Source: Pontibacter kalidii
GTDB lineage: Bacteria > Bacteroidota > Bacteroidia > Cytophagales > Hymenobacteraceae
Reading direction: 5' to 3'
DNA length: 64,000 nucleotides
Assembly (NCBI RefSeq): GCF_026278245.1
Contig: NZ_CP111079.1
Location: 2,792,501 to 2,856,500, forward strand
Position 1 is the stretch's first letter, and every line of letters starts with the position of its first letter. The notes beneath the pieces were generated by a model. The model was not told the origin of the DNA. It was given only the letters and a program-made list of their open reading frames with translations, and ran no database searches. Made by a program: the position numbers and the translations under genes. This document shows positions 1 through 64,000 of this stretch, piece by piece.

Positions 1-425
1 TTCAGGCTACTTATGCCATGCTAAAGTATTTTTACTTCTCTTTTAAAGCCTTCAAATATGTGGTGACAGAATAGGTGGCAAAATTTTGTATAACACCTGT
101 TATCACCGATGATGATATATCACCAATACGCTATATACGCTGCAAACGTACGTCTTCAAACCCTTGAAGTAGTTAAGAACTCACTGAAGCCCGGCTCAAG
201 GTATAACACAAACAAAAAAGTCTTGTAAGCTAATAACTTGCAGAGTTTTTTGATATTAGGGGGCTGATGAGGGGACGGACTACTGCTGGCCCTGAAACAT
301 CTTGCGGTGGTAGCAATTCACCTGAGTCAATGATGGCCACCAGGCCTTTTCCCCTAGTATCACGGCGCGAAATAAAAGTGCAGACGGGACTGAGCGAATA
401 GTTCGGGAGCAAGTGCTTCTTTTAC
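1..425. other. Non-coding left edge
   Basis: No gene is supported here. A 60-codon minus-strand open frame at 230-412 has no recognisable family, no promoter and low-complexity composition. The AAGTATAA octamer is absent. The stretch lies downstream of the recombinase relic and may be leftover mobile-element DNA. Confidence 0.5.
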
Positions 426-742
426 TTATTCCTCCTTTGCTGTAAGCCGCTCCCGGAGCCGCTGCATACCCTCCCCTACCTTCACATACAATATTTTAGC
501 ATTATGCTGCTTACTTCTCAGGTTTGTATGCCCCTGCGTCTTCAACACGCTCTCCATAGGCACCCCGTTAAGAAGCATAGCAGGCAGTATGGAGGTCATC
601 TGCTTGGATCCCGCGCAGGCGGCTTGTTGCCAGCTCTGCCCGCCTACCGGCTACAGTGACACGCAGGCAGATCTGTACGGGCCTGTCTGGAGTTTTTCGG
701 TTTCTTCACGTTGAAGAGGAGACTGAAAACGGTGCTTCTAAC
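426..742 (-). pseudogene. Collapsed tyrosine recombinase (integrase) relic
   Basis: The minus strand carries two recognisable ends of a Bacteroidota tyrosine recombinase with the middle missing. From about 742 it reads RSTVFSLLFNVKKPKNSR, then after a +1 shift QICLRVTVAGRRAELATSR. This is the arm-binding N-terminal domain typical of these integrases. From about 592 to the TAA at 426-428 another frame reads NGVPMESVLKTQGHTNL, followed by QHNAKI and a charged tail, which is the C-terminal catalytic end. The family normally has QHYAKI here, with Tyr as nucleophile; this copy has Asn. The central catalytic domain is deleted, there are at least two frame changes, and the nucleophile is lost, so it cannot be active. 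Confidence 0.75.
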
Positions 743-930
743 GGTGACATAAAAGGTTTAATAAAAGTAGCCTTGCAGTAAACCGCACTCAAGGCATACT
801 TCTTCTGTATACCTTGCATATCAACGAGTCACATATATATCCAATGAGTCAATGGGGACTTTTGGGATACTCACCTGGCTACTTACCTAAAGTATTGGAA
901 AAGGTGAAGAATTTAGGAGCCCCTCGAAAA

Positions 931-968
931 CAAAAAAGCCTGCAAACGAAGAGCTTGCAGGCTTTTTT
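931..968 (-). terminator. Intrinsic terminator downstream of the tmRNA-like fragment
   Basis: Arms AAAAGCCTGCAA and TTGCAGGCTTTT form a strong hairpin with A/T tracts on both sides. It sits just 3' of the tmRNA-like fragment on the minus strand, where a native RNA-gene terminator would be expected. Confidence 0.8.
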
Positions 969-987
969 CTGATTATGGCATTCCTAC

Positions 988-1050
988 CAGCAGAGATGCA
1001 GGGATACGAACCCTAGTCCAGACAATCTCGACGAGCCTACCTAAACTTTA
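988..1050 (-). ncRNA. tmRNA 3'-end-like fragment (possible attachment-site remnant)
   Basis: Read on the minus strand this has a stretch like the segment before the tmRNA T-arm (GTAGGCTCGTCGAGATTG, then TCTGGAC). A good T-arm follows (TAGGG, loop TTCGTAT, CCCTG) and then CATCTCTGC, which resembles the CATCTCCA 3' acceptor strand of Bacteroidota ssrA. The next 330 bases upstream contain no 5' acceptor strand, tag frame or pseudoknots that I can recognise, so this is not an intact ssrA. ssrA 3' ends are common integration sites for tyrosine recombinases and a decayed one lies 250 bases away, so an att remnant is plausible. A degenerate tRNA is the alternative. Confidence 0.4.
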
Positions 1051-1868: not shown

Positions 1869-2154
1869 TGGAAATCCCTTACTGCTTAAGAGACTGCAAA
1901 CATACTACATCGATCTGTACAACGCAATACCCTGCCGTAAAATTCCTTCCAAACATTTCACGCCACCCGCCCCACTGAAAGCTAACTCCTTGATACAGCA
2001 AAGCTTCTTATAGGTAAGAAACCCAAAAAAAATGTTCAACCCAGATTTATACTTGCGATAAAGCCCACCACGTTGGGAAAAGGAGCCATTCTATACTTGT
2101 TCATGCCTTGGTTTACCCTATGCCGGCACCTGCTACAGTCTGGTTGCGGTTTAG

Positions 2155-3178: not shown

Positions 3179-4110
3179 AAACAATCGCCATGGCAGCCAT
3201 ACTTCTTGTCAGCCTGTTTAGCGGCGGCATATCCATCATTACGCGCATTAACCAGCATGCCGAAGAGGCGGCCATCGCCTATCAGCGCAAAGATTACATA
3301 GAGGCCATCGCCTCCTACAATTACCTGCTGGATGACCTGGAGGTGGATGATGACCTGCTGCGCCTGAACCTGGCCCACTCCTATTACCAGGCGGGGCTGC
3401 TGCCACAGGCCACTTCGGCTTACCAATACCTGGCAGACCACCCCACCCCGCACCTGCGTGCGCTAGCGCACCTGCAGCTGGGCAACATCCACACGAAGCA
3501 GAAGAAGTATAAACGGGCCCTCTCGCTCTACAAACTGGCCCTGGTGGCCGAGCCCGGCAACGACGCGGCCAGGTATAACTTTGAGCTCCTGAAAAAGTAC
3601 CTGTTGCTGCACCCCGAGGCCGCTGAGGAACAGCAACAGGAGGCACCGGAGCAGGAAAATAATGCTGAGCAGGATCAACAGCAGCAGCCTGCAGAGGAGG
3701 ACCTGGCGCCGCAGCCCCAGAAGAATCCCGACGAGCAGGGCGAGCAGCAGGAAATCGACCAGCCGGCGCCGGCCCAGAATGGCCAACAACAGCAAGCAGG
3801 GAGCAGCGAACAGCAGCTGAGCGATCAGGAGCGGGAGGAGATTGCCGGTGAAGCGGATGGTGACACAGAAGGGCTGCAACTCAATAACCCGTTCGATAAG
3901 AGCGGCCAGCAGCACAGGGGCAGCTCGGAGGAAGTATCGGAAGAGGACCAGCAGGCACAGATGCGTCGCGCCAGGCTGCGCCAGGCCAACATGAGCCCCG
4001 AGAAAGCCAGGCTCCTGCTCGATGCCATGCGCAACGCAGAACTGCAGTACATACAGCAGCTTCCCAAAAAACCGACCCGCCAGCCGGACCCCAGCAAGCC
4101 GGACTGGTAG
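3175..4110 (+). CDS. batC: TPR protein, BatC-like
   Basis: A 311-residue exported protein with an N-terminal hydrophobic segment (about residues 5-22). Roughly three tetratricopeptide repeats follow over residues 30-145 (for example YIEAIASYNYLLDDLE and YKRALSLYKLALVAEPGN). The tail, residues 150-300, is low-complexity, rich in Gln, Glu and Pro, and probably disordered. TPR plus an acidic/Q-rich tail after BatB is the usual form of BatC, a presumed periplasmic scaffold. It is translationally coupled to batB by a 4-base overlap. No terminator is obvious before the tetR promoter. Confidence 0.8.
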   Translation: MKTIAMAAILLVSLFSGGISIITRINQHAEEAAIAYQRKDYIEAIASYNYLLDDLEVDDDLLRLNLAHSYYQAGLLPQATSAYQYLADHPTPHLRALAHLQLGNIHTKQKKYKRALSLYKLALVAEPGNDAARYNFELLKKYLLLHPEAAEEQQQEAPEQENNAEQDQQQQPAEEDLAPQPQKNPDEQGEQQEIDQPAPAQNGQQQQAGSSEQQLSDQEREEIAGEADGDTEGLQLNNPFDKSGQQHRGSSEEVSEEDQQAQMRRARLRQANMSPEKARLLLDAMRNAELQYIQQLPKKPTRQPDPSKPDW

Positions 4111-4187: not shown

Positions 4188-4207
4188 CCAAAGTATAAGC
4201 AACACCC

Positions 4208-6724: not shown

Positions 6725-6865
6725 TTATAGTTTGATGTCCGGCGTATAGGCCACCTCCAGCACAAAGCCGTTCGGGTCGCGGAAATCTATAGTGTAGTAG
6801 TGTGGCATAGGCTGCGGCCCGTGGTTAATATCGGCGTTTATACTTTTATAACTCAGGTGGCGATG
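6725..6865 (-). pseudogene. C-terminal fragment of a VOC/glyoxalase-family protein
   Basis: The minus strand ending at the TAA at 6725-6727 reads about 45 residues, including HYYTIDFRDPNGFVLEV then AYTPDIKL. This is the last beta-alpha-beta-beta unit of a VOC (glyoxalase/bleomycin resistance) protein, with the usual DPxGxxxE ending. No start codon or N-terminal half can be found upstream, where the sequence turns into hairpins and octamer copies. It is a truncated remnant. Confidence 0.7.
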
Positions 6866-6914: not shown

Positions 6915-7046
6915 CAAGTCTCCAGACTTGTTTCCTATTATGGTGTCGGGTTTGCAACCCGACTGGCTTGAAAAGCCATACTTTTATACTTGCTGTTCCG
7001 GACATGCTTGTCCGGAACTACTTCTGCTGCGGATTTCCGAATCCGC
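6915..7046. repeat. Array of four different perfect hairpins (REP-like)
   Basis: Four compact palindromes follow each other in 132 bases: CAAGTCTCCAGACTTG (6915-6930), GTCGGGTTTGCAACCCGAC (6945-6963), arms GTTCCGGACA/TGTCCGGAAC with loop TGCT (6995-7018), and arms GCGGATT/AATCCGC (7029-7046). Sequences differ but size and spacing are alike, as in REP clusters mobilised by RAYT transposases. No transposase is nearby. They occupy the place of the missing half of the VOC gene. Confidence 0.75.
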
Positions 7047-7189: not shown

Positions 7190-7500
7190 CCCGGGAGGGC
7201 TCGTCTTCCCGCATCGCGCTGTGTACATTTCCTTTGCTGTCGCAATTTCGCTAAAGCGAAACCGGAAATCTACAAGGCGCTCAACGGAAAGACTGGGTAT
7301 CATTTCGATAGCTGCTGCTATACAATAGGAACCAAGCTCCCTCCCCTGTTCTTAGGGGAGGGCTGGGGTGGGGTGAAATTCCCCTCTCTGGAAGGGCCAA
7401 GGGTGGGTTTATACTTAAATAGGGACAGGTCGCGACCAGTTCACCGCTTTAGCGATGCCACAAGTATAAGAGGTTTTATACTTATACTTTGGCAAATGTC
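7190..7500 (+). repeat. Dispersed composite repeat, copy A
   Basis: This stretch matches 44715-45030 in reverse orientation over about 300 degenerate bases. Shared blocks in order are GAGGGCTCGTC, GCATCGCGCTG, AGGCGCTCAAC, ACTGGGTATCATTTCGATAG, a C-rich/G-rich hairpin ending GGGGTGG, and AGGGACARGTCGCRACC. No open frame is conserved between the copies, so it is probably a non-coding repeat family. Confidence 0.7.
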
Positions 7501-7839
7501 TTTTGCCCGGAATCCCTGACAACTCCCTTCGGGGTAGAGGTGGGTAATCGCAACTTGAGTTTTATACTTTCGAGCCCCTACCCTGTCCACTACCTGGCCG
7601 ACCGATGCCCACGCCATACTTGTATGCCATACTTTAAATTTGCGTTTGATGTCTGCTAAAGTATAAAAACCCAAAAAAAGAGAATGCATGGAAGGCTATA
7701 CTTCTACTTTCTTTGCGGGGAACTACCGGCGATGACGTATAAGTTTCCCTGAAATACTCGGTGATACTTGCCATACTAATACTTGCTGCGTTCATACTTT
7801 ATACTTCCCTCTCCTCAGATTTATACTTATACTTGCCGG
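7501..7839. other. Intergenic, rich in the octamer
   Basis: No gene is supported; an 82-codon minus-strand frame at 7441-7689 has no family resemblance. Several TTATACTT copies lie here, including two in tandem just upstream of the thioesterase start. TATACTTG (7828-7835) ends 4 bases before that ATG and could act as a variant -7 box. Confidence 0.5.
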
Positions 7840-8370: not shown

Positions 8371-8399
8371 GAAAGTATAAAACCGTACTTTGGTTTAGT

Positions 8400-8673
8400 G
8401 CCCTCGCTCGCCTCCGGCGCGTGTGAGTTATCATGTGGCGTCCCGCCACGTTACGCTGCAAGTATAAAGTATGGCCTGAAGTATAATTCCACTATGAATT
8501 CATTTATGCGCATCAGATGCCTTGCCAAGTAAAGCCAATTCCCCTCCTTGGAGGGGTAGGGGTGGGTTAATGTTTTTTAGATGCGCACGAGCCACTCAAT
8601 ACTAGTATAAAGTATAATCCGAAGCGGCCAGAGGCCTTGGGGAAGCTCACACGTGCCAGAGGCGAGCGAGGGC
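8400..8673. mobile_element. Small non-coding element bounded by 30-bp inverted repeats (MITE-like)
   Basis: The left end at 8400-8429 starts GCCCTCGCTCGCCTC. The right end at 8644-8673 reads the same on the opposite strand, with about 3 mismatches in 30. The ~215 bases between have no open frame. They hold a CCCCTCCTTGGAGGGG hairpin followed by TAGGGGTGGGTT, also found in the composite repeats, and several octamer copies. No target-site duplication is clear. A MITE or an old REP-type unit both fit. Confidence 0.5.
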
Positions 8674-8725
8674 TGTATATAGAATGATCCTCCAAAGTAT
8701 AAAATCATACTTCAGGCAACCGCAT

Positions 8726-8762
8726 AAAAAAACGGGAGCAAGTATAACCTGCTCCCGTTTTC
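8726..8762. terminator. Terminator with the octamer in its loop
   Basis: Arms AAAACGGGAGCA and TGCTCCCGTTTT, with loop containing AAGTATAA (8740-8747). It lies 20 bases past the stop of the minus-strand S9 peptidase gene and has T-runs on both strands. Confidence 0.85.
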
Positions 8763-8782
8763 TGTTTATCTAAAGTATAAAA

Positions 8783-11656
8783 CTACTCCTTTGCCTCTCC
8801 GGCTACCTCAGGCTCCCTTACCAGCTCCAGGCCGTAGTCTTTGCCTTTGATAACCGATGGCACGCCCTGCTCCATCCATTTCGGGGCCGGGGCTCCTTTC
8901 AGGTAATGGTCGAAGAACTGCGACATGCGCACCGAAAGGTCTTTGCGGTTCTTGCGCTGCATCAGGTTGTGCTCCTCGCCATTGTACACCAGCATCCAGA
9001 CAGGCTTGTTGAGGCGGCGCAGCGCCATAAAGTACTCGATACCCTGGTACCAAGGCACGGCTCCGTCGTTGTCGTTGTGCATGATCAGCAGCGGTGTCTG
9101 TACGCGGTCGGCAAAGAAGAGCGGCGAGTTCTCGATAAACTGCATCGGCTTCTCCCACAGCGTACCGCCAATGCGGCTTTGCGTGCGCTCGTACTGGAAC
9201 TGGCGGCTCAGACCCGTGCCCCAACGGATACCGCCGTACGCACTCGTCATGTTCGATACCGGTGCGCCGGCCATGGCCGCCTTGAACAAATGTGTTCGGG
9301 TAACCATGTAGGCGATCTGGTAGCCGCCCCAGCTCTGGCCCTGCAATGCCATGTTCCTGTCATCTACAAAGCCCTGCTGCACCAGCATTTGTACACCCGG
9401 TATAATGCAGTCCATGGCGCTCTCGCCCGGGTAACCATTCTGGTACACGATGTCCGGCACGAACACCAGGTAATCGTTGCTCACAAACAGCGGGATGTTG
9501 ATCGTAGAAGCGCTTGGGGCCGGCACGCGGTGGTTGTGTATGCCATCCGAGGAGCGCTCATAAAAATACACCAGCATCGGGTACTTCTTATTCGCATCAA
9601 AGTTCTCGGGCTTGTAGAGCAGCCCCTGCAGCGGAATACCGTCCGTGGATTTCCAGTTCACCAGCTCCACTGTGCCCCACTTATACTCCGCCGCCTGCGG
9701 GTTGGCGTCCGTCAGCTGCTGCACGTTGGCAAAGCTCAGGTCCGAAGTATACAGGTCGTTATAGTTCCTGAAATCGCCGCGGCGGAAGGTAACCAGGTTG
9801 TTGTCTTTGGCTTTACTGAGCGAAGTATAGGCATGGTCAGAGCTGATGAGCTGCTCCGGTTTTGCCTCTTTGCTCACATACTCCTTGTAGTAGCCGTCGG
9901 CTTTTGTGCCAATGTTAAAGCCGCTCAGGTACAGCTCGGCGTTGGCAGGTATAAACTTCTGCTCCGGGTCCAGCTTTTCATAGCGCAGGCGCAGGTTGTG
10001 CTGGCGCCCATAGGTGTCAGTCAGGTTCACAGCGGCCTTTTTGCCCGTAGGGTCCAGCTTCCATATGTCGTGCTTGTCGTATACCAGCAGGTGGCTGTCG
10101 TTTTCTACCCAGCCCCCGAAACCGTAGTCGTCCGGAAGCATCGGCATGTCGAAATCCTCCTCGTAAAAAGGCACTCCTACTTTTTTTGTCAGGTTGATAT
10201 TGGCGCCTCCCTTGGTGCTCATGGCGTGCCAGCTGCTGTCCATCGGCTCATACCAGTACACGTACTTGCCCATCGGCGAAAGGCGCGGGTTACCTCTTGA
10301 TTCCGTCAGTACCTGTTTGGTCGTTCCCTTCTTCAGGTCGATCAGGTAGGCGTCCTTGCGGGTCGGGGTGTCGTAACCGATCGTGATTTTATACTTCTCG
10401 TCGCTCACGCCTAGCGCCACATCCCCGGTCTTGTAGGCATCCAGGTACACATCCGGCATCTCCAGGGTGGCCAGCTGCTGCATTTTGCCCCCTCTCAAAT
10501 CGTACATGGCCAGGAAGGAGCGCTTCAGGGTGCGGTCGTTCTGTTTGAGCTGCATGGGCTGTATCAACGGATCTTTGTAGGTCCAGATATCCAGGCTTAC
10601 CTTGTCCTCCTCCAGCTGCGTGGTGTCTTTCTCGTAGCGCACCGGGCGCGGGAACGTGCCGAAGAACAGGCGCTTGCCATCCTCGGAGAATATCAGGCTG
10701 CCGTGCTCGCTCACCATCCAGTCCTGCGGCATGCCTTTGGCTACGGTATCGGCCAGCACCTGGCTTTCGCGGCTTTTGGTGTTCCAGTAGTTCAGGCTGA
10801 AGTAGCGGATGTCGGCTTTCAGCGTATCGGCAGTGGCCACGTAAGCCAGTTGGTTTCCGGCCTTGTCGGTGCTGATGCCTTTGTAGGAGACCAGGCCCGT
10901 ATCGATCGGCATTTCCTTCAGCTCGGAAGTACTGAAAGCAAATACCCCGGCCTGGTGCAGTGAGTCCAGCTCATCCTTCACGAAGTACAGCATGTTGCCC
11001 TGCTCCGAGAAAATATAGTCCACCACGCGCGGGAAACGGTGCTCCTGTCCGGTGCTGAGATTGCGCAGCACCAGGTCGGTACCCTTGGCATCCTTGTTTT
11101 TCTTTAGGGTTGATTTCTTTTCCCCAGTTTTTTCCGCGCCTGCTGCGGTTGTGTCTTTCTTAGCTTCCTTCTTCTCCGGCAGCGGCTTCTCCAGGTGGTA
11201 GGCCAGCCAGCCGCTTCCCTCCTTCGGCAACTTATACGACTGCACCCGCGGCACCTTTACCACCCTCATGTCTTCCAGGCTCACAATCGCCAGGGAGTCT
11301 TTGGGCAGGTCATCGCCCTTTTTCTTCTTCAGCTTCAGGGCGCGCACTTTCTGGTGCTCCGGCTTTATCTGGAAAACGGCAAAGCGGCTGTCGTTGCTGA
11401 AGCTGGCCTTGGAACCACGGTTATACTTAGCTGTGGCGTTGTTGACCATACTGCGGATGTAGAGGTCGCCATCGCCCTCCTGTGGGTTGATGTTGTAGAG
11501 CACAAACTTGCCGTTGTGGGAAATCTTATCCCCACTCAGGCCATTCCAGCTGTCGTACACATCGTGGGTAAGCGTTTTTTTGGCTGTCTGCTGTTGCGCC
11601 TCGGCCTGCAGCAGGCCAGCGCTGAAGACAACAGCCAGGCATAAAAGTTTCTTCAT
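8783..11656 (-). CDS. S9 (prolyl oligopeptidase) family serine peptidase, exported
   Basis: A 957-residue exported peptidase. The signal peptide MKKLLCLAVVFSAGLLQAEA precedes a long beta-propeller region. The C-terminal alpha/beta-hydrolase domain (about residues 690-940) carries the nucleophile in GQSWGGYQ (Ser near 770), the Asp in HNDNDGAVPW and the His in NGEEHNL. It probably cleaves oligopeptides in the periplasm, like DPP4 and acylaminoacyl-peptidase relatives. At about 950 residues it is larger than DPP4 but usual for this Bacteroidota subgroup. I chose ATG 11656 because an upstream in-frame ATG at 11719 would put 21 residues before the signal peptide. It is monocistronic. Confidence 0.88.
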   Translation of the reverse strand: MKKLLCLAVVFSAGLLQAEAQQQTAKKTLTHDVYDSWNGLSGDKISHNGKFVLYNINPQEGDGDLYIRSMVNNATAKYNRGSKASFSNDSRFAVFQIKPEHQKVRALKLKKKKGDDLPKDSLAIVSLEDMRVVKVPRVQSYKLPKEGSGWLAYHLEKPLPEKKEAKKDTTAAGAEKTGEKKSTLKKNKDAKGTDLVLRNLSTGQEHRFPRVVDYIFSEQGNMLYFVKDELDSLHQAGVFAFSTSELKEMPIDTGLVSYKGISTDKAGNQLAYVATADTLKADIRYFSLNYWNTKSRESQVLADTVAKGMPQDWMVSEHGSLIFSEDGKRLFFGTFPRPVRYEKDTTQLEEDKVSLDIWTYKDPLIQPMQLKQNDRTLKRSFLAMYDLRGGKMQQLATLEMPDVYLDAYKTGDVALGVSDEKYKITIGYDTPTRKDAYLIDLKKGTTKQVLTESRGNPRLSPMGKYVYWYEPMDSSWHAMSTKGGANINLTKKVGVPFYEEDFDMPMLPDDYGFGGWVENDSHLLVYDKHDIWKLDPTGKKAAVNLTDTYGRQHNLRLRYEKLDPEQKFIPANAELYLSGFNIGTKADGYYKEYVSKEAKPEQLISSDHAYTSLSKAKDNNLVTFRRGDFRNYNDLYTSDLSFANVQQLTDANPQAAEYKWGTVELVNWKSTDGIPLQGLLYKPENFDANKKYPMLVYFYERSSDGIHNHRVPAPSASTINIPLFVSNDYLVFVPDIVYQNGYPGESAMDCIIPGVQMLVQQGFVDDRNMALQGQSWGGYQIAYMVTRTHLFKAAMAGAPVSNMTSAYGGIRWGTGLSRQFQYERTQSRIGGTLWEKPMQFIENSPLFFADRVQTPLLIMHNDNDGAVPWYQGIEYFMALRRLNKPVWMLVYNGEEHNLMQRKNRKDLSVRMSQFFDHYLKGAPAPKWMEQGVPSVIKGKDYGLELVREPEVAGEAKE

Positions 11657-11806: not shown

Positions 11807-11853
11807 CGTGTTCTGGTAGCGCATGATCTATTGCCTTAGTTTTGCGTTTATAC

Positions 11854-11882
11854 TTGTCAGATAGCCAGCGCTTATACTTTTG
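11854..11882 (+). promoter_or_regulatory. Bacteroidota promoter TTG-N18-TACTTTTG for the thiolase
   Basis: TTG at 11854-11856 and TACTTTTG at 11875-11882 with an 18-base spacer fit the Bacteroidota -33/-7 consensus. The octamer TTATACTT overlaps both elements. Confidence 0.6.
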
Positions 11883-12070: not shown

Positions 12071-13255
12071 ATGCAAACGAAAGAAGTATATATCATTTCG
12101 GCGGTTCGTACCCCCATCGGTTCCTTTGGCGGTGCCCTGGCCAGCCTCTCGGCTACCCAGCTTGGTGCGGCAGCTATTAAAGGAGCCCTGGAGAAGGCCG
12201 GCGTGGATAAAAAAGAAGTGCAGGAGGTGATCATGGGCAACGTGATCTCTGCCAACCTGGGGCAGGCCCCTGCACGCCAAGCAGCTATTTTTGCCGGACT
12301 GGGCCATGAGGTGGAGTGTACGACCATCAACAAAGTATGCGCCTCCGGCTCTAAGGCCATCATGTTCGCGGCGCAGGCCATTATGCTGGGCCATAAGGAT
12401 GTGATCGTGGCGGGCGGCATGGAGAGCATGAGCAACGTGCCTTACTACCTCGACAAAGCCCGTTTCGGTTCTAAGCTGGGCCATGGCCAGATGATCGACG
12501 GCCTGCTGAAAGACGGCCTGTGGGACGTGTACAACGATTTCCATATGGGTAACGCGGCCGAGAACACGGCCCGTGAGCTGAAGATCACGCGCGAGATGCA
12601 GGATGAGTACGCCGTCAACTCCTACAAAAAGGTAGCCGAGGCCTCGAAGGCTGGCCTGCTGAAGGACGAGATCGTGGCCGTGGAAGTTCCGCAACGCGGC
12701 AAAGACCCCATGGTAGTAGCGGAAGATGAAGAGTTCTCTAAAGTTAACTTCGATAAAATCCCTGGCCTGAAGCCTGTCTTCGACAAGGCCGGTACGGTAA
12801 CGGCTGCCAACGCCTCCACCCTGAACGATGGTGCCGCTGCGCTGGTGCTGATGAGCAAGGAGAAAGCTGAAGAGCTGGGCGTGAAGCCAATTGCCAAGAT
12901 CCGTGGTTTTGCCGATGCCGAGCAGGACCCGATCTGGTTCACCACTACCCCATCGCTGGCTATTCCGAAGGCGCTGAAGAACGCCGGAGTAGATGCCTCC
13001 GAGGTGGATTTCTATGAAATCAACGAGGCCTTCTCGGTAGTATCCATCGCCAACAACCAGAAACTGGGCCTGGAAGGCGGCAACGTGAACGTGTTTGGCG
13101 GTGCTGTATCGCTGGGCCACCCGCTGGGGGCTTCCGGGGCGCGTATCGTCGCCACGCTCTGCAACGTGCTGGATAAGAAAGGTGGCAAAATCGGTGTAAC
13201 CGGTATCTGCAACGGCGGCGGCGGTGCCTCTGCCATCGTGATCGAGAAAGTATAA
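12071..13255 (+). CDS. Acetyl-CoA C-acetyltransferase (thiolase)
   Basis: A 394-residue thiolase that joins two acetyl-CoA into acetoacetyl-CoA, or cleaves 3-ketoacyl-CoA in the reverse direction. The nucleophile C90 lies in NKVCASGSKA, H350 in GHPLGASGAR, and the acid-base C380 in GICNGGGGAS. All are intact and at family-typical positions. No fatty-acid oxidation genes adjoin it, so biosynthetic (AtoB/PhaA) and degradative (FadA) roles cannot be separated. The final codons and stop AAA-GTA-TAA contain an octamer copy, and a strong terminator follows. Confidence 0.93.
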   Translation: MQTKEVYIISAVRTPIGSFGGALASLSATQLGAAAIKGALEKAGVDKKEVQEVIMGNVISANLGQAPARQAAIFAGLGHEVECTTINKVCASGSKAIMFAAQAIMLGHKDVIVAGGMESMSNVPYYLDKARFGSKLGHGQMIDGLLKDGLWDVYNDFHMGNAAENTARELKITREMQDEYAVNSYKKVAEASKAGLLKDEIVAVEVPQRGKDPMVVAEDEEFSKVNFDKIPGLKPVFDKAGTVTAANASTLNDGAAALVLMSKEKAEELGVKPIAKIRGFADAEQDPIWFTTTPSLAIPKALKNAGVDASEVDFYEINEAFSVVSIANNQKLGLEGGNVNVFGGAVSLGHPLGASGARIVATLCNVLDKKGGKIGVTGICNGGGGASAIVIEKV

Positions 13256-15275: not shown

Positions 15276-15288
15276 GTATAAAACACTG

Positions 15289-19089: not shown

Positions 19090-19343
19090 ATCTACTCTGT
19101 CGTTTCTGATTTAGTGTTCGAATTATTTCAAGAATTGAAGATAGCAATACGGAATAAACCTGAGAAGTTTTCAGTAAAAAGATTGTGTTAACTGGCGCGC
19201 CTGAAGTATAAAGGCAGTGTTTATAATGACTCCATACGTTCCACTTGCCCGGATGCACGCATAAACACCGCCTCTCTGTAGCACTTAATATAGATTATGT
19301 TTACTATATTTATATAACTCAATCCTTCTAAAACGATAAAGCT

Positions 19344-38678: not shown

Positions 38679-38696
38679 TTTGTTTTATATTTATAC

Positions 38697-40967: not shown

Positions 40968-40989
40968 CCTGTTTATACTTTGTCAAAGC

Positions 40990-49337: not shown

Positions 49338-49380
49338 CATAGTCAGTATGCAGCCGGGATAATTAAACCCCTACAGAAGT

Positions 49381-49430
49381 ATAAAAACAGAAGCGGCCAC
49401 TAAAGTATAGCGGCCGCTTCTGTTTTTATA
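49381..49430. terminator. Bidirectional terminator with octamer-like loop
   Basis: AAACAGAAGCGGCC and GGCCGCTTCTGTTTTT form the stem; the loop contains AAAGTATAG. Octamer copies flank both sides (AAGTATAA near 49378, TTATACTT near 49427). Confidence 0.88.
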
Positions 49431-49434
49431 CTTC

Positions 49435-51844: not shown

Positions 51845-53744
51845 GAAGCGGATTGCCACAGCCATACTTGGTTTGTTTTCCAGCTTTGGCGCCATGGCCC
51901 AGATGCCGGCAGAGCCGCCCATGCCGGCCCCGGCCGACTACTTCCTCTTCCCGATAAAGCCGGGTGAGCGCAATTACCTGTCGGGCACCATGGGCGAGAT
52001 TCGCTCCAACCACTTCCACGGCGGGCTCGATATCAAGACCGATCAGCGCGTGGGCCTGAACGTACACGCCGCCGCCGACGGCTATATCTCACGGGTGAAG
52101 CAGTCTACCTACGGTTATGGCAACATCATCTATGTCACGCACCCCAACGGCCTGGTAACCACGTACGCGCACCTGCTGGAGTTTTACCAGCCGCTGGCCG
52201 ACCATGTGCTGCAAAAGCAGTACGAGAAGCAGACTTTTGAGCTGGAGCTGTTCCCGGAGCCAGGGCAGTTCCCTGTGAAACGCGGCGACGTGATCGGCCT
52301 ATCGGGTAACACCGGCGGCTCGGGTGGCCCGCACCTGCACTTCGAGATTCGCGACAAGGAAGACCGCCTGTACAACCCGCTGCGCTATACATTTAAGGAG
52401 GTGATCGACACCACGCCACCGGATATTTATAGTATAGGCATCGCGCCGCTTAACATCCACGCCAGGGTAAACAATGCGTTTGAGCGGGCCGAGCTGCGCA
52501 CCAAAAAGGTAGGCAATAACTATACGTTGACCGACACGGTTTTCGCCCACGGCCTGCTGGGGCTGGAACTGCAGACCATCGACCGCCTCGACGGCGCTGC
52601 CAACAAGAACGGCACGCAGGAGGTAACGCTGTTCGTGAACGGGGAGCAGATGTATAACCACTACATCGACAGGGTACCTTTTGAGCTGTCGCGGCAAGTG
52701 TCGCAGCACATCAATTACGGCCAGTACAGGCGCCGTGGCAGTACGTTCCAGAAAGCATTTGTGGATTACGGCAACGACCTGCCGCTCTACAAGGCCAATG
52801 GCAGCGATGGCCGCCTGAAGGTGCACCCGGACTCGGTTTACCAGGTAAAGCTGGTGGCCCGCGACTCCTATAACAACACTTCCTCCCTGAGCTTCACGGT
52901 GAAGGGCCAAAAACCGGCCTTTACCCAAACCAGGTCTGCCACGGTGAAGAAGCCAAGTATAAACTACGAGATCCTGGGCAATGTGCTGCGGATAAACGCC
53001 GCCGATACCAGCGCCACACCCAAGAACATCGAGCTGTTTGTAGGCGGTGAGGAATTGATGCTGGTACCCAGCTACGTGAGCAACTCCATTGCCGTGGGCC
53101 TGTATGACCTGCGCGCCGGCCTGCCCGACTCGATGCGCTTCTGCGGGCTGAGCACAAGCTTTGGCCTGGAGCAGATGGTGCCGCCGGCGCAGGAGTTCCA
53201 GTTCCGTAACAGTTACCTGAAACTGGGCTTCGACAAACAGAGCCTGTACGACACGTTATACTTACAAACGAGCCTGGAAAACGGTGTATTCACGATCGGT
53301 GATTATTTCACGCCGCTGCACAAGGCCATTAAGGTAACGCTAAAGGCCGACACCACCGGCATAGACAAGAGCAAGGCTGCCGTATACTTCCTGGGCACCG
53401 GGCGAGGCCGCGGCTTTACCGGGGGCAAGTGGGAGGGCAACACCATCACCTTCACCACCCGGAACATGGGTAAGTTTAAAGTGATGGAAGATACCAAGGC
53501 CCCGACCATACGGTTGATCAGCAAGAGCCGCAACGGCATCAGCTTTAAAATAGCAGACGATCTCTCGGGCCTGAACTCCTATAATGCCTGGGTGGACGGA
53601 AAGTGGATCCTGATGAAGTATGAGCACAAACAGGCCACGATCTGGTCCGAAAAGCTGGATAAAAACATACCTTTATCGGGTGAGGTGATCCTGAAGGTAA
53701 GGGATAATGCCGGCAATGAGGCGGTGTATACTACCAGAATTTAA
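51804..53744 (+). CDS. M23-family peptidase with long C-terminal region
   Basis: A 646-residue exported protein with signal peptide (about residues 15-33, IATAILGLFSSFGAMAQ). The LytM/M23 domain is N-terminal (about 50-190), with the first zinc ligands in NHFHGGLDIKTD and the last in GGPHLHFEIRD. The ~450-residue C-terminal region is beta-rich, with Ig-like stretches (for example VYQVKLVARDSYNNTSSLSF), and is of unknown function. It is a peptidoglycan endopeptidase or a regulator of one. The start at ATG 51804 overlaps the FAH gene by 41 bases; an earlier TTG at 51783 is possible. Confidence 0.88.
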   Translation: MLKTRNSSILKLNKKRIATAILGLFSSFGAMAQMPAEPPMPAPADYFLFPIKPGERNYLSGTMGEIRSNHFHGGLDIKTDQRVGLNVHAAADGYISRVKQSTYGYGNIIYVTHPNGLVTTYAHLLEFYQPLADHVLQKQYEKQTFELELFPEPGQFPVKRGDVIGLSGNTGGSGGPHLHFEIRDKEDRLYNPLRYTFKEVIDTTPPDIYSIGIAPLNIHARVNNAFERAELRTKKVGNNYTLTDTVFAHGLLGLELQTIDRLDGAANKNGTQEVTLFVNGEQMYNHYIDRVPFELSRQVSQHINYGQYRRRGSTFQKAFVDYGNDLPLYKANGSDGRLKVHPDSVYQVKLVARDSYNNTSSLSFTVKGQKPAFTQTRSATVKKPSINYEILGNVLRINAADTSATPKNIELFVGGEELMLVPSYVSNSIAVGLYDLRAGLPDSMRFCGLSTSFGLEQMVPPAQEFQFRNSYLKLGFDKQSLYDTLYLQTSLENGVFTIGDYFTPLHKAIKVTLKADTTGIDKSKAAVYFLGTGRGRGFTGGKWEGNTITFTTRNMGKFKVMEDTKAPTIRLISKSRNGISFKIADDLSGLNSYNAWVDGKWILMKYEHKQATIWSEKLDKNIPLSGEVILKVRDNAGNEAVYTTRI

Positions 53745-55301: not shown

Positions 55302-55345
55302 GTTATACTTTCGGACCTGAGCCCACATCCTTCTGGTTTTAGCGC

Positions 55346-56737
55346 ATGGTAAGCTGGAGCAAAAGTATAGCCTCCCTTCTTTTTTTGCTGATGATTTCGG
55401 CAACGGGAGGCGCTTTTGCCCAGGATAAAAAACCGCAGCCTAAAACACGCATCCTCTTTCTGCTGGATGCCTCGGGAAGTATGATGGCCAAGTGGGAGAA
55501 CAGCGACCGCATGGCCGTCGCCAAAAGCCTGCTCAGCCACCTGGTGGACTCGCTCGACCAGTATGACAACGTGGAGGTGGCGCTGCGGGCCTACGGCCAC
55601 CAGTTTGGCCGTGAGCGTAACGACTGCAAGGACACAAAGCTGGAGGTGCCTTTCGGGGAGGATAATGCTGATGCTATCAAGAAAAAGCTGGATGCCATTG
55701 TGCCCCGGGGCAACACGCCCATCACCTACTCGCTGCAGCAGGCCGCCGGCGATTTTCCGGAGGACCGCTCCCGCAACGTGGTGATCCTGATTACGGACGG
55801 GCTGGAGTCCTGCGGCGGCGACCCTTGCGCCACCTCCGAGGCACTGCAGCGGAAGCGTATTTTCCTGCGCCCCTTCGTGATCGGCATCGGCATTGAGCCA
55901 GAGCAGGAGAAACAGCTCAACTGCATAGGCCAGTACTTTAACGCCGCCGACATCAAGACGTTTGAGACGGTGCTGACCGAGATCGTGACGCAGGCGCTGA
56001 GTCAGACCACCGTGAGCGTGGAGCTGCTTGACGAGCAGAACCGCCCCAGTGAAACGGGCGTGAACATGACCTTTGTGAACGCCCTGACCGGTGAGGCAGA
56101 GTATGATTACGTGCATTACCTGGATGCCAACGGAAAAACCGACGTGCTGGACGTGGATGCCCTCCTGCCCTACCACCTGCTGGTGAACACCACACCGCCG
56201 GTGCTGGAGCGCAACCTGAGCATCAGGCCGGGCAGAAACAATATAATAAAGGTAAAGGCGCCGCAGGGGGAGTTATACCTGCGCCAGGATGGTCCCTCGC
56301 CTTACAAGCTACTGAACGCCATCGTGCGCCAGGCAGGCTCTGAGAAGACCCTGAACGTGCAGCCCTTCGGCAACCGGCACAAGTACCTGGCGGGCAAGTA
56401 TGACCTGGAGATACTCACGATGCCGCGGATCATGCTCCGTAACGTGGAGCTGAAGCAGGGAGAGACGAACACTATCACCATCCCGCCGCCAGGCCAGCTG
56501 GCCATTCCCTCGCAGGTGCAAGGGTACGGCAGCGTGTACGAGCTGCACGAGAGTGGCGCCCAGCGCTGGCTTTACAACCTGCCGGAGGATAACAGCAAGG
56601 TCACCATGGCCCTGCAGCCCGGCAAGTATAAAATAGTGTACCGGATGAAATCCGCCCAGTCGAGCAAGTTCACTTTTGTGCAGGACTTCACCATACGATC
56701 GGGCGCAACCACTACCGTAAGGATTTTTAACAGATAA
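55346..56737 (+). CDS. Exported VWA-domain protein inserted between the transketolase subunits
   Basis: A 463-residue exported protein: signal peptide (about 1-25, ending GGAFAQ), VWA domain (about 33-215) with an intact MIDAS (D-A-S-G-S-M, plus NTPITYSL and TDGLES), then beta-rich repeats over about 225-463 (Ig or PEGA-like: LKQGETNTITIPPPGQ; LQPGKYKIVYRMKS). Extracytoplasmic VWA domains bind protein partners through metal. Nothing links it to sugar metabolism. It lies 44 bases after tktN and 65 before tktC, all in one direction. Confidence 0.85.
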   Translation: MVSWSKSIASLLFLLMISATGGAFAQDKKPQPKTRILFLLDASGSMMAKWENSDRMAVAKSLLSHLVDSLDQYDNVEVALRAYGHQFGRERNDCKDTKLEVPFGEDNADAIKKKLDAIVPRGNTPITYSLQQAAGDFPEDRSRNVVILITDGLESCGGDPCATSEALQRKRIFLRPFVIGIGIEPEQEKQLNCIGQYFNAADIKTFETVLTEIVTQALSQTTVSVELLDEQNRPSETGVNMTFVNALTGEAEYDYVHYLDANGKTDVLDVDALLPYHLLVNTTPPVLERNLSIRPGRNNIIKVKAPQGELYLRQDGPSPYKLLNAIVRQAGSEKTLNVQPFGNRHKYLAGKYDLEILTMPRIMLRNVELKQGETNTITIPPPGQLAIPSQVQGYGSVYELHESGAQRWLYNLPEDNSKVTMALQPGKYKIVYRMKSAQSSKFTFVQDFTIRSGATTTVRIFNR

Positions 56738-56802
56738 GGAGGCTTGCTAAAGTATAATTTAACCAGGCAGCGCCCTCTATAAGCTTAAGAAAAAATAGAC
56801 AG

Positions 56803-57818: not shown

Positions 57819-57889
57819 AGTATCATAGCCGTTGCCTCGGAATTAAAGTATAAACTGAGCCCGCCGTTTCTGTTTACCGATACCGCCCG

Positions 57890-59429: not shown

Positions 59430-59483
59430 CCGTTTCAGCGAAGTATAAACCTGAAGCCTTACAAGATGCCCCGGGTTTTATAC

Positions 59484-60203
59484 TTAGTATACATCCAGCA
59501 GGAAGTTGATATCGTCGGAAGGCTTAAACTCCATTGGCTTATCGCTTTGCAGAAAGACACGCGCCGTGTGTGGCCCCAGCAACTTCATTCTGTCGCCCTG
59601 TACGCGCAGCATGCTGCCCTCGCGCAGGCCGATGACCGGTTGTTGGTTGTGGTGGTGGAATTCGGCAATGCGGGTGTCGCGTGTCTCGCCCATGTGCGTG
59701 GAGCCCGGGTCCGGGTCCAGGAAATGCGGGTTGATGTTGAACGGTACCAGCTGCAGCGCATCGAAGGTTTTTACATGCACAATCGGCATGTCGTTGGTGG
59801 TGCCGATGGTTTTGCCCGCTACATTGGTGCCGGCGCTGGTGCCCATGTAAGGCATGCCCTGCCGCACACGCTCCCGCAGCGGCTCCACCAGCTTGTTCTG
59901 GTAGAGCTGGCGTAGCAGCACAAAGGTGTTTCCACCTCCGATAAACACCGCTTCCGCCTCTTTTACGGCTTTCGCCGCATCATCATGCTCATGCACGCCG
60001 CTCACACTTACGCCCCATTTCTCAAAGGCCTCGCGCGCTTTAGAAGTATAATCCTTATGCGATATCCCCCCCGGGCGGGCGTAGGGTATAAACAAGATGC
60101 TCTTTTTACCCTCCAGCAGGGCCCTTACCTCCTGCTCTGCATGCTCCAGGTAACCGGTGCCGTGCGTGGTAGAGGTGCTTATCAAAAGTAAGTTTCTGCT
60201 CAT
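59484..60203 (-). CDS. pepE: Dipeptidase E (S51 peptidase, PepE)
   Basis: A 239-residue cytoplasmic serine peptidase that cleaves Asp-X dipeptides. The nucleophile S123 lies in GTSAGTNVAG, followed by D138 and H160. The 15- and 22-residue spacings equal those of the Salmonella/E. coli Ser-Asp-His set (120, 135, 157). The family start FIGGGNTFVLL and NPHFLDPDPGSTHMGETRDTRI are clear. I chose ATG 60203, just after a -7 box; the frame is open further upstream but without homology. Confidence 0.92.
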   Translation of the reverse strand: MSRNLLLISTSTTHGTGYLEHAEQEVRALLEGKKSILFIPYARPGGISHKDYTSKAREAFEKWGVSVSGVHEHDDAAKAVKEAEAVFIGGGNTFVLLRQLYQNKLVEPLRERVRQGMPYMGTSAGTNVAGKTIGTTNDMPIVHVKTFDALQLVPFNINPHFLDPDPGSTHMGETRDTRIAEFHHHNQQPVIGLREGSMLRVQGDRMKLLGPHTARVFLQSDKPMEFKPSDDINFLLDVY

Positions 60204-60214: not shown

Positions 60215-60482
60215 GGAAATTTGAGCATGAGCCGGCCAGGGGAAGTGGAAATTTGGGGGTGAGGGAGATGTAGGTATACTTCTTTTCAGCAGAAATTATA
60301 CTTGCGTTGAAATGGCACGGACTGCCGGCCCGCACCAACGCATCTTGCTAAAAAAGCACTTCCCTTTTGAGAGGGATTGGATGTAATTTATACTTGCTAT
60401 ACTTGCAGGGACAGGTGAGGCTGAAGAAGTATGATTCATACGGCTACAGCAAACTTTCCGTGTCCATTTCCTATTATCAGAT

Positions 60483-62416: not shown

Positions 62417-62461
62417 AACGCAAAAGGGCCAGGATGATACTTCCTGGCCCTTTTGCGTTTA
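62415..62461. terminator. Bidirectional terminator between MBL and small basic protein genes
   Basis: AAACGCAAAAGGGCCAGGA and TCCTGGCCCTTTTGCGTTT form a 19-bp stem with GATACT in the loop. A TTATACTT octamer follows near 62459. Confidence 0.92.
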
Positions 62462-62475
62462 TACTTCTTGCTTCA

Positions 62476-62664
62476 TTAGCTGCCTGGATGGTTCTTCCTG
62501 CCCGAGCCGCTTTTGTTTCCGCCGCCGTCTTGCTTGTTCACGGTCGCCCAAGCACGCTTCTCTGCTTCTTCTTGGCTCACGCCGCGCTTTTCGTATCCTT
62601 CCTCAATGTGCTCGGCTTTGCGTTTCTGCTTATCGGTGTAAGCAGATTTATCTCCTCTTGGCAT
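62476..62664 (-). CDS. Small basic 'plasmid stabilization'-type protein (62 residues)
   Basis: A 62-residue, highly charged protein with the conserved pattern GDKSAYTDKQKRKAEHIEEGYEKRGVS...AEKRAWATVNK and a Gly/Ser-rich basic tail. Proteins of this type are widespread in soil bacteria under the name 'plasmid stabilization protein' or KGG-like, but their function is not established. I chose ATG 62664 (MPRGDKS); an ATG five codons upstream is possible. Confidence 0.75.
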   Translation of the reverse strand: MPRGDKSAYTDKQKRKAEHIEEGYEKRGVSQEEAEKRAWATVNKQDGGGNKSGSGRKNHPGS

Positions 62665-62793
62665 TTTCTCTCCTTTCAATTAAGTGATACATCTGTTCCG
62701 CATCCTCTGGCTCACATCAGTGTACGGGTATACTTCACAAAGAGATCAGAATTATACTTTGCCCTTGCTGTAGCTCTGTAGTAGAAGTATAAA

Positions 62794-64000
62794 CTAGGAC
62801 TGGCGCTGATGGAAGTATAACCGGAAGGTAGAGCCTTTCCCAACTTCACTCTCCACCTCTATTTTGTCCTCAGAGTTATCCAGGATGCGCCTGACAAGGT
62901 ATAGCCCCAGGCCCGTGCCCTCCACATGCGTATGCAGGCGTCTGAACATCGAAAAGATCTTTTTCTTGTGTTTTTCATCTATGCCCAGACCATTATCAGA
63001 CACCGACAGCACACACTGCCCTTCCTGCTTTTCCGTTTTGATTCTGATAAGCGGGCGGCGCTCAGGCGAGGCGTACTTTATGGCGTTGGAAACTAGGTTG
63101 AAGAGGATGCTCCGCAGGTTTTTGCGGGAATAATTTAAGTAACCGAGAGCCGAAAAATCTTTCTCAATAACGGCGTTGCAGGAGAAGATAAGGTTCTCCA
63201 GGCTGTCTTCCACATCCGTCATCAACTCCTCTAACTGCACCTTCTCCACCTGGTGCTCCTCATACTGCACCCTGGATATATCCGTCAGGTCTAATATGAT
63301 GCTGTTCAGGCGGTGGATGGATCTATCAATGCGGGTGATCACCTCCTGGTGCTTCTCCAGGTCCGGCCCCAGGTCCGACTTCAGTAAAGAGACCAGTCCC
63401 TCCAGGTTGGAGATGGGCGCCTTCAGGTCGTGGGAGGCGGTGTAAACAAAGTTGTCCAGGTCGGTGTTGATCTTGTGCAGCTCCTTGTTCTTTCGCATCA
63501 GCTCCTCGTTCTTCCTCTTCTCCGAGTTGTCGCGGGTGATCTTGGAGAAACCAAGGAGCTTTCTCTCTGCGTTGTAGACCGGCGTGATGATCACATTTGC
63601 CCAAAACGTGCTGCCATCTTTGCGTACGCGCCAGCCTTCATCCTCAAAGCGTCCATCCTGTAGGGCTTTGCTTATCTCATAGTCTGTATATTTTTTCTCC
63701 CTGGCATCCTGGGTATAAAAATTGGAAAAGTGCTTGCCTATGATTTCCTCTGCCTTGTAGCCTTTTATCTTCTCGGCACCCCGGTTCCAGGAGGCCACAA
63801 TGCCGTCGGGGGTAAGCATAAAGATGGCATAATCCCGCACACCCTCTGTTAGCAGCCGGGCCCGCTCTTCGCTATCCCGGAGCTCCGCCATGGTCCTCGA
63901 GAGTTTATCTTCCAGTATCTTCCGTTCGGTAAGGTCGCGCGTAATCTTAGAGAAGCCGATCAGCCTGCCATCCTCGGCGCTGCGAATGGCCGTGATGATC
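62794..64000 (-). CDS. PAS-domain sensor histidine kinase (cut by the window edge)
   Basis: The frame is open to the right edge, so the N-terminus is missing; at least 402 residues are visible. Upstream of the ATG at 63891 the same frame continues with the end of another PAS domain (RLIGFSKITRDLTERK), so the protein has at least two PAS domains. After the second PAS come the H-box YTASHDLKAPISNLEG, the N-box NLVSNAIKYASPE, the G1 box SVSDNGLGID and the G2 region GTGLGLYLV. It has no visible membrane helix or receiver domain. The signal and partner regulator are unknown. Confidence 0.9.
   Translation of the reverse strand, partial: IITAIRSAEDGRLIGFSKITRDLTERKILEDKLSRTMAELRDSEERARLLTEGVRDYAIFMLTPDGIVASWNRGAEKIKGYKAEEIIGKHFSNFYTQDAREKKYTDYEISKALQDGRFEDEGWRVRKDGSTFWANVIITPVYNAERKLLGFSKITRDNSEKRKNEELMRKNKELHKINTDLDNFVYTASHDLKAPISNLEGLVSLLKSDLGPDLEKHQEVITRIDRSIHRLNSIILDLTDISRVQYEEHQVEKVQLEELMTDVEDSLENLIFSCNAVIEKDFSALGYLNYSRKNLRSILFNLVSNAIKYASPERRPLIRIKTEKQEGQCVLSVSDNGLGIDEKHKKKIFSMFRRLHTHVEGTGLGLYLVRRILDNSEDKIEVESEVGKGSTFRLYFHQRQS

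What the first reader, a model, noticed from the sequence alone, without database searches (positions are those of the whole stretch)
1..64000. Hugely over-represented octamer AAGTATAA/TTATACTT
I counted about 75 exact copies by eye, close to equal on both strands, where about two are expected for an arbitrary 8-mer. Copies occur between genes, inside genes in several frames, as part of stop codons (13248, 13908) and in the loops of terminators (8740, 21382, and variants at 23731 and 49403). The density, about one per 850 bases, and presence in coding DNA recall DNA uptake sequences such as Haemophilus USS. A nucleoid-protein site, a modification site or a mutational relic are alternatives. 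TTATACTT(T/G) also overlaps the -7 box of some promoters.
Basis: partly seen in the sequence, partly recalled or inferred. Interest (0 to 1): 0.8.

Follow-up and report, generated by a model that had tools for sequence, protein, structure and literature searches.

The report
DNA-uptake-like watermark dialects in Pontibacter
An eight-letter DNA word is scattered thousands of times through this bacterium's chromosome but is almost absent from its plasmid, and sister species use different versions of it, which looks like a tag for recognising DNA of one's own kind during gene uptake, in a phylum where no such tag had been described.

Summary
The window has 76 exact AAGTATAA, 38 per strand (shuffles: 1); the Pontibacter genome has 5271, against 112 for the reversed word. 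There is no leading/lagging bias; enrichment over composition-matched words is equal in genes (26x) and between them (28x). The genome's conjugative plasmid has 4 copies where 87 are expected. Sites arise by substitution.

New: dialects. 40 of 50 genus genomes are rich in one of four words fitting A-NN-TATA-R (AAGTATAA, AACTATAG, AGGTATAG, ATATATAA), distributed by clade (8 changes; shuffled minimum 20); a few genomes mix two. None of 154 other family genomes is rich in AAGTATAA, but four Hymenobacter genomes are rich in an unrelated octamer, GGGGGCAA.

This matches DNA uptake sequences, reported only from Neisseriaceae and Pasteurellaceae. ComEC, DprA and a ComEA-like protein are present; no type IV pilus ATPase was found. 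One genome has exactly these three genes broken and a thinned word, but other genomes break that correlation. Receptor and uptake are unproven. Best reading (0.75): a pilus-independent self-DNA uptake word.

The parts
2047..2054 (-). AAGTATAA copy
3505..3512 (+). AAGTATAA copy
4191..4198 (+). AAGTATAA copy
6838..6845 (-). AAGTATAA copy
6984..6991 (-). AAGTATAA copy
7409..7416 (-). AAGTATAA copy
7462..7469 (+). AAGTATAA copy
7476..7483 (-). AAGTATAA copy
7482..7489 (-). AAGTATAA copy
7562..7569 (-). AAGTATAA copy
7659..7666 (+). AAGTATAA copy
7799..7806 (-). AAGTATAA copy
7821..7828 (-). AAGTATAA copy
7827..7834 (-). AAGTATAA copy
8373..8380 (+). AAGTATAA copy
8460..8467 (+). AAGTATAA copy
8479..8486 (+). 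AAGTATAA copy
8610..8617 (+). AAGTATAA copy
8695..8702 (+). AAGTATAA copy
8740..8747 (+). AAGTATAA copy, in the loop of a terminator-like hairpin
8773..8780 (+). AAGTATAA copy
10389..10396 (-). AAGTATAA copy
11421..11428 (-). AAGTATAA copy
11848..11855 (-). AAGTATAA copy
11872..11879 (-). AAGTATAA copy
13248..13255 (+). AAGTATAA copy supplying the stop codon of the thiolase ORF 12071-13255
13908..13915 (+). AAGTATAA copy supplying the stop codon of ORF 13355-13915
15274..15281 (+). AAGTATAA copy
16068..16075 (+). AAGTATAA copy
16402..16409 (-). AAGTATAA copy
19204..19211 (+). AAGTATAA copy
20212..20219 (-). AAGTATAA copy
20344..20351 (+). AAGTATAA copy
21200..21207 (+). AAGTATAA copy
21382..21389 (+). 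AAGTATAA copy, in the loop of a terminator-like hairpin
23675..23682 (-). AAGTATAA copy
23710..23717 (+). AAGTATAA copy
25432..25439 (+). AAGTATAA copy
25499..25506 (-). AAGTATAA copy
32813..32820 (+). AAGTATAA copy
33571..33578 (+). AAGTATAA copy
33710..33717 (+). AAGTATAA copy
37493..37500 (-). AAGTATAA copy
38094..38101 (-). AAGTATAA copy
38673..38680 (-). AAGTATAA copy
38691..38698 (-). AAGTATAA copy
39062..39069 (+). AAGTATAA copy
39115..39122 (-). AAGTATAA copy
40094..40101 (-). AAGTATAA copy
40711..40718 (-). AAGTATAA copy
40973..40980 (-). AAGTATAA copy
42259..42266 (-). AAGTATAA copy
42901..42908 (+). AAGTATAA copy
44615..44622 (-). AAGTATAA copy
44777..44784 (+). AAGTATAA copy
44870..44877 (-). 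AAGTATAA copy
45301..45308 (-). AAGTATAA copy
46243..46250 (+). AAGTATAA copy
49200..49207 (+). AAGTATAA copy
49377..49384 (+). AAGTATAA copy
49426..49433 (-). AAGTATAA copy
52955..52962 (+). AAGTATAA copy
53256..53263 (-). AAGTATAA copy
55303..55310 (-). AAGTATAA copy
56624..56631 (+). AAGTATAA copy
56750..56757 (+). AAGTATAA copy
57846..57853 (+). AAGTATAA copy
59441..59448 (+). AAGTATAA copy
59478..59485 (-). AAGTATAA copy
60044..60051 (+). AAGTATAA copy
60296..60303 (-). AAGTATAA copy
60388..60395 (-). AAGTATAA copy
62459..62466 (-). AAGTATAA copy
62752..62759 (-). AAGTATAA copy
62785..62792 (+). AAGTATAA copy
62813..62820 (+). AAGTATAA copy

Best explanation
AAGTATAA is the local dialect of a self-DNA uptake word. 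Inferred mechanism: a surface or outer-membrane DNA receptor (not identified) prefers double-stranded DNA carrying the word. The DNA then passes through a ComEA-like three-HhH protein and ComEC and is recombined with the help of DprA. Because imported fragments that carry the word replace homologous chromosome segments more often, mutations towards the word are amplified (molecular drive), so it accumulates on both strands wherever sequence constraint allows. When receptor specificity changes, the genome drifts to a new dialect; four dialects of one scaffold, A-NN-TATA-R, exist in the genus. Shown here: the distribution, the dialects, substitution origin, above-control conservation, near absence from a resident conjugative plasmid, and the presence of ComEC, DprA and a ComEA-like protein. 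Not shown: uptake, the receptor, and the drive itself.
For: 5271 copies, strands equal, 47x the reversed word. No leading/lagging bias, 475 against 473 of 948 in 40 stretches. Enrichment over 167 permuted words 25.7x in CDS and 28.2x between genes. Four dialects in 40 of 50 genus genomes, clade-wise: 8 Fitch changes, 1000 shuffles mean 24.7, minimum 20. Sites conserved above permuted control words in three dialect groups: 0.476 v 0.254 (12 of the 22 AAGTATAA genomes), 0.647 v 0.299 (12 of 12 AGGTATAG), 0.526 v 0.304 (5 of 5 AACTATAG) (pairs not independent). 1 of 108 sites in five conserved proteins touches an alignment gap against basal word-free species, background 7.2%. Conjugative plasmid C2: 4 copies in 73.8 kb, 87.5 expected; sampled second contigs of two other genomes 4 in 60 kb and 3 in 40 kb. 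ComEC with an uninterrupted full-length frame in 47 of 50, ComEA-like in 49 of 50, DprA in 48 of 50. In G166 exactly these three are broken among 32 conserved genes tested in four regions and its density is 0.46/kb against 0.71-1.44 in its eight closest relatives; unique new sites are rarer there, 5 against 277 control words v 79 against 1188 in seven relatives, p 0.001 (two sister pairs count some sites twice).
Against: No uptake assay and no receptor. Seven of the ten word-free species lie among word-bearing ones yet have intact ComEC, DprA and ComEA-like genes, so these genes do not predict the word. G147 has a density as low as G166's (0.45/kb) with all three intact; G186 keeps 5041 copies with broken comEC and dprA. 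The retention test in G166 did not show faster loss of word sites relative to control words: ratio 1.24 against 1.05-1.30 in seven relatives. G170, with intact genes, also gains few sites. The DUF5689 family of the proposed Riemerella surface DNA binder does not track the word (22 of 50). No type IV pilus ATPase, the engine of both known systems, was found. The fourth dialect, ATATATAA, is a low-complexity word picked after seeing a sample of G181 and is the weakest (8.5x its reversed control).
Confidence: 0.75

Rival explanations
1. A chromosome-organising or nucleoid protein binds the word and selection keeps thousands of sites; a protein change makes the dialect.
For: Thousands of sites spread over the chromosome, almost none on the plasmid; conserved above control words.
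Against: Enrichment is the same in CDS and intergenic DNA; spacing is clumped, not regular (gap CV 1.30; Fano 2.16), with no trend round the chromosome; ten species, seven of them nested, do without it.
Confidence: 0.09
2. A biased mutation, repair or modification process writes the word (a HIP1-like case) without any uptake function.
For: Sites arise by substitution; gains are biased towards the word, up to 15.7x an average control word.
Against: The resident conjugative plasmid is not written (4 of 87.5 expected), unless it arrived very recently; a mutational bias does not by itself explain conservation above control words or switches between words of one scaffold.
Confidence: 0.08
3. The word is a self-tag that spares DNA from a defence nuclease.
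For: Self-specific, dialectal, nearly absent from the plasmid.
Against: The untagged plasmid persists in the cell. No nuclease candidate was searched for.
Confidence: 0.04
4. A polar recombination or segregation motif (Chi or KOPS).
For: Short, non-palindromic, frequent.
Against: No strand bias relative to GC skew: 257/223 where skew is positive and 250/218 where it is negative.
Confidence: 0.02
5. A transcription signal (terminator or promoter element).
For: Some copies sit in terminator-like loops and stop codons; enrichment is higher in convergent (36x) than divergent (20x) spacers.
Against: 423 of 947 sampled copies lie inside my gene calls, in both orientations, and enrichment there is 26x.
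Confidence: 0.02

Closest known systems
DUS dialects of Neisseriaceae (PMC3630211: abstract and section 6 read)
   Same: Thousands of copies; related dialects that follow the phylogeny; one genome (S. muelleri) with two dialects at once, compare G159 and G191; family members without any.
   Different: 10-12-mers with a CTG core, receptor ComP, a type IV pilin; here an 8-9-mer A-NN-TATA-R in Bacteroidota, no type IV pilus ATPase found, receptor unknown, uptake untested.
USS of Pasteurellaceae, Hin and Apl types (passages of PMC1626085, PMC1939737 and PMC12616744 read)
   Same: Tested as not insertions; no orientation bias; more in non-coding DNA; not evenly spaced; dialects by clade.
   Different: 9-mer core in a longer consensus of about 17 bases and a predicted pilin receptor (ComN/PpdA); here hardly any flank consensus beyond one A on each side.
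Natural transformation of Riemerella anatipestifer (PMC8459023: abstract, passages and section 20 read; passages of PMC7965970 read)
   Same: Bacteroidota, no pilus homologs, needs ComEC, DprA and a periplasmic three-HhH protein; R. columbina prefers its own DNA.
   Different: The putative uptake words visible in the passage of PMC7965970 are A-rich 10-mers whose action is left open; no dialects in the passages seen.
HIP1 of cyanobacteria (recalled, nothing read)
   Same: A short word hugely over-represented.
   Different: HIP1 is a GC-rich palindrome with no dialect series known to me; AAGTATAA is not a palindrome.

Membership tests
DNA uptake sequence (DUS/USS) | Short non-palindromic word in hundreds to thousands of copies, far above expectation | tested here: met
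   5271 copies against 112 for the reversed word
DNA uptake sequence (DUS/USS) | Both strands, no orientation bias round the chromosome | tested here: met
   475 leading, 473 lagging in 40 stretches of 20 kb
DNA uptake sequence (DUS/USS) | In genes and between genes, denser between genes | tested here: met
   0.684/kb CDS, 2.81/kb intergenic; nearly equal enrichment once compared with permuted words
DNA uptake sequence (DUS/USS) | Sites arise by substitution, not insertion | tested here: met
   1 of 108 sites at an alignment gap; lost sites often differ by one base
DNA uptake sequence (DUS/USS) | Related dialects that follow the phylogeny | tested here: met
   Four words in 40 of 50 genomes, 8 changes against a shuffled minimum of 20
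DNA uptake sequence (DUS/USS) | Depleted in recently acquired mobile DNA | tested here: met
   Plasmid C2 4 copies against 87.5 expected; it encodes TraG, TraM, relaxase and transposases
DNA uptake sequence (DUS/USS) | Bearer has transformation genes | tested here: met
   ComEC, DprA and a ComEA-like protein in the own genome and nearly all others, but word-free species have them too
DNA uptake sequence (DUS/USS) | Type IV pilus with a pilin receptor, as in both known families | tested here: not met
   PF00437 gives only short Walker-box-region matches, 3 of 50 just over cut-off; pilins and secretins were not searched
DNA uptake sequence (DUS/USS) | The word raises DNA uptake or transformation | not testable with these tools
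   Needs an assay
Chi site | Polar with respect to replication | tested here: not met
   the definition is recalled
HIP1 | Palindromic GC-rich octamer | tested here: not met
   AAGTATAA is not its own reverse complement; the HIP1 definition is recalled

The most novel reading that the evidence does not exclude
Bacteroidota have evolved their own pilus-independent self-DNA recognition, separately from the two proteobacterial families. In Pontibacter it has run through at least four dialects of one A-NN-TATA-R scaffold, including mixed genomes caught between dialects and species that lost it, and an unrelated word (GGGGGCAA) rose the same way in a small Hymenobacter group. Dialects would act as mating barriers, read by an unknown class of outer-membrane DNA receptor.
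Probability: 0.6. Interest if true: 0.93.

Novelty: new variant of a known kind. Interest (0 to 1): 0.86.

Why it matters
[quoted passage not shown] A third, phylogenetically remote case without a type IV pilus ATPase would show that such words evolve repeatedly and do not depend on pilins. Fifty genomes with four dialects, mixed genomes, probable losses and one genome with a broken pathway form a natural experiment for finding the receptor by coevolution and for testing whether the word is a by-product of uptake bias or a mate-recognition signal. The word could also make these bacteria genetically tractable, and word-poor stretches flag foreign DNA.

Tried and rejected
Literature search with the octamer (27 papers, 20 listed): the listed titles are unrelated; none was opened. 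Searches for uptake sequences with Bacteroidetes/Bacteroidota, Pontibacter or Hymenobacter (one search listed 20 of 120) listed no title on such a word in this phylum beyond the Riemerella work; the k-mer table is in PMC7965970. A library of open-licence papers only.

Receptor hunt: the ComEC (11 genomes), DprA and ComEA-like (8 genomes each) neighbourhoods show no obvious receptor gene. DUF5689 (22 of 50 genomes) comes in two sorts: frames of 413-450 aa in 12 word-bearing genomes (in one of two loci examined the neighbour is SusD-like) and of 1099-1299 aa in 10 genomes, 5 of them word-free. Rejected as the receptor. ComEC, DprA and HhH presence do not separate bearers from non-bearers.

Erosion in G166 by site retention: negative, because G166 evolves faster at control words too. 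The gain test leans the expected way, but G170 is nearly as low.

Chi/KOPS polarity rejected; insertion of a mobile unit rejected; inverted-repeat terminator pairs rejected as the source: of neighbouring sites under 60 bp apart, 125 pairs are in the same orientation and 62 in opposite.

Limits of my own scripts: the gene calls are home-made and cover 77.5% of the sample, so some genes count as intergenic; in the gap test, proteins that could not be placed back on the DNA were dropped and their number was not printed.
Full report
OBSERVATION. AAGTATAA occurs 76 times in the window, 38 per strand; shuffles give 1.0 and an order-3 Markov model 6.7. No other 8-mer scores higher in the window. The genome holding the window has 5,054,860 bases in two contigs and 2681 + 2590 copies, against 51 + 61 for the reversed word. 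In 864 kb (40 evenly spaced stretches plus the window) there are 1024 copies against a Markov expectation of 87.8. The consensus is (A)AAGTATAA(A): the next base is A in 64% and the previous A in 42% of 1021 sites; beyond that no position carries more than 0.04 bit. Single-base variants AAGTATGA (5.1x), AAGTATAG (5.0x) and AAGTATAC (2.7x) are also in excess.

WHOSE GENOME. A search with the window's Mpl-like protein returns Pontibacter as the nearest named genus.

DISTRIBUTION. In 40 stretches of 20 kb there are 507 forward and 441 reverse copies, and no link to GC skew: leading 475, lagging 473. Counts per stretch run from 11 to 42 without a trend round the chromosome. In 864 kb the word lies 423 times in my CDS calls, 504 times between them and 20 times at edges. 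Against 167 permutations of the same letters the enrichment is 25.7x in CDS and 28.2x between genes; convergent spacers 36x, tandem 28x, divergent 20x. In five of six frames it is common; in the sixth, which would place TAA in frame, 12 copies remain; the window copies at 13248 and 13908 are of this kind and supply the stop codon. A few copies sit in loops of terminator-like hairpins, but close neighbours are mostly in the same orientation (125 of 187).

PLASMIDS. The second contig of the genome (73.8 kb) carries TraG, TraM, relaxase, ArdC, integrase and transposase genes among 20 ORFs scanned and only 4 copies; 87.5 are expected at the chromosomal density of 1.185 per kb. Sampled second contigs of two relatives have 4 in 60 kb and 3 in 40 kb; what they encode was not looked at. 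Inside the window the longest word-free stretch (7.3 kb, 25507-32812) covers a sugar-isomerase-like gene, a SusD-like gene, a large unscanned ORF and part of a FecR-like gene, which may be acquired DNA.

DIALECTS. Among 204 genomes of the family only the window's genus is rich in AAGTATAA; the 154 others stay at or below about 2.4 times the reversed word. Scanning syntenic 20-kb loci for top words showed that several genus members use other words. Whole-genome counts over the 50 genus genomes: AAGTATAA is the main word in 22 (2246-7030 copies); AACTATAG in 5 (6288-8208); AGGTATAG in 12 (2823-5222); ATATATAA in 1 (3231; 115-496 in the other 49). Ten have none: their highest ratio to the reversed word for any of the four is 4.8, against a lowest of 8.5 among bearers. 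All four words fit A-NN-TATA-R. The fourth was picked after seeing top words in 100 kb of G181 and then counted in all 50; it is of low complexity and the weakest. Four genomes mix two words: G159 (4476 AAGTATAA + 2002 AACTATAG), G191 (3911 + 2617), G161 (2125 + 6288) and, weakly, G195 (6128 + 907). In a 20-kb sample G159 uses AAGTATAA, AAGTATAG, AACTATAA and AACTATAG about equally (20, 15, 17, 15).

TREE. A tree from five proteins puts the AGGTATAG genomes in one clade and the AACTATAG genomes plus G159 and G191 in another, both with support 1.00; three word-free species are basal, seven word-free lie among bearers, though some deep nodes are weak (0.24-0.46). With five labels, mixed genomes labelled by their commoner word, the tree needs 8 changes; 1000 shuffles need 20 or more.

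ORIGIN AND MAINTENANCE OF SITES. In syntenic DNA round dnaB, sites of the own dialect are conserved more often than permuted control words: 0.476 v 0.254 (12 of 22 AAGTATAA genomes), 0.647 v 0.299 (12 AGGTATAG), 0.526 v 0.304 (5 AACTATAG); pairs of genomes are not independent. Sites are gained by substitution: 1 of 108 sites in five conserved proteins is at a gap against basal word-free species, where 7.2% of background windows are. New sites arise 3.0-15.7 times more often than an average control word in eight genomes.

MACHINERY. ComEC is found in 50 of 50 genomes and in an uninterrupted frame of at least 702 aa in 47 (G184 has 561 aa, G166 and G186 an internal stop). DprA is intact in 48, a ComEA-like protein with three HhH motifs and PF12836 and TIGR00426 matches in 49. 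A three-HhH protein is also essential for transformation in Riemerella, which has no pilus homologs (PMC8459023, passages). PF00437, the type IV pilus ATPase family, gives only short matches. In G166, a one-contig genome, dprA, the ComEA-like gene and comEC are the only broken genes among 32 conserved genes tested in four regions; in seven relatives 3 of 232 tests call a gene broken. Three of the four regions were chosen because they contain these genes. G166 has 0.46 copies per kb; its eight closest relatives have 0.71-1.44.

AGAINST. Seven nested word-free species keep all three genes; G147 is as thin as G166 with intact genes; G186 has broken comEC and dprA and 5041 copies of its word. Site retention in G166 is not lower relative to control words. 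So the link between these genes and the word rests on one suggestive genome, and the sequence-specific factor must be something else. The DUF5689 family does not track the word.

COMPARISON. The sequence-level hallmarks of Neisseria DUS and Haemophilus USS that I tested are met: no orientation bias, non-coding surplus, uneven spacing, not insertions (passages of PMC1939737 and PMC1626085), dialects by clade and genomes with two dialects (PMC3630211, section 6). The pilus is not met, and uptake is untested. I therefore call it a DUS-like word, not a member of the pilus-based systems. PMC12616744 (passage) says only the two proteobacterial families are known. My literature searches listed no earlier report for this phylum; they cover open-licence papers only, and most listed papers were not opened.

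WIDER. In one search two Hymenobacter loci showed GGGGGCAA as a top word. Over 204 family genomes four of the 120 g4 genomes (g4 taken as Hymenobacter, an inference) have 1836-2034 copies, strands equal, against 71-80 for the reversed word; none of the other 200 has more than 386. In the two loci 26 of 29 copies lie in ORFs, consensus GGGGGCAAA. So the phenomenon seems not to be confined to Pontibacter.

Noticed in passing
L087 and L089 (Hymenobacter sp. BT188, H. qilianensis); whole genomes G071, G072, G074, G096: Unrelated octamer GGGGGCAA(A) is over-represented about 23-28 times over its reversed control, equally on both strands, in 4 of 204 family genomes; a second possible uptake word.
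   Followed up: partly
L090 (Adhaeribacter terrigena): AAACGGTA occurs 12 times in 21 kb, 2.1 expected, dispersed on both strands.
   Followed up: no
L077 (Rufibacter immobilis): GCCCCTAA occurs 11 times in 21 kb, partly as inverted pairs 24 bp apart, more like a dispersed hairpin repeat.
   Followed up: no
G147:C1:1944098-1946633: 39 listed copies of AGGTATAG at about 66-bp spacing (the listing stops there), looking like the repeat of a CRISPR array.
   Followed up: no
window 25507-32812: Longest word-free stretch of the window (7.3 kb), over SusD-like and FecR-like genes and a large ORF; possibly acquired DNA.
   Followed up: partly
G166 (L229, L265, L273): comEC, dprA and the ComEA-like gene are all broken in one single-contig genome while the 29 other conserved genes tested are intact.
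   Followed up: yes
G186: Draft genome with broken comEC and dprA but intact ComEA-like gene and 5041 copies of its word; recent loss or sequence errors.
   Followed up: no
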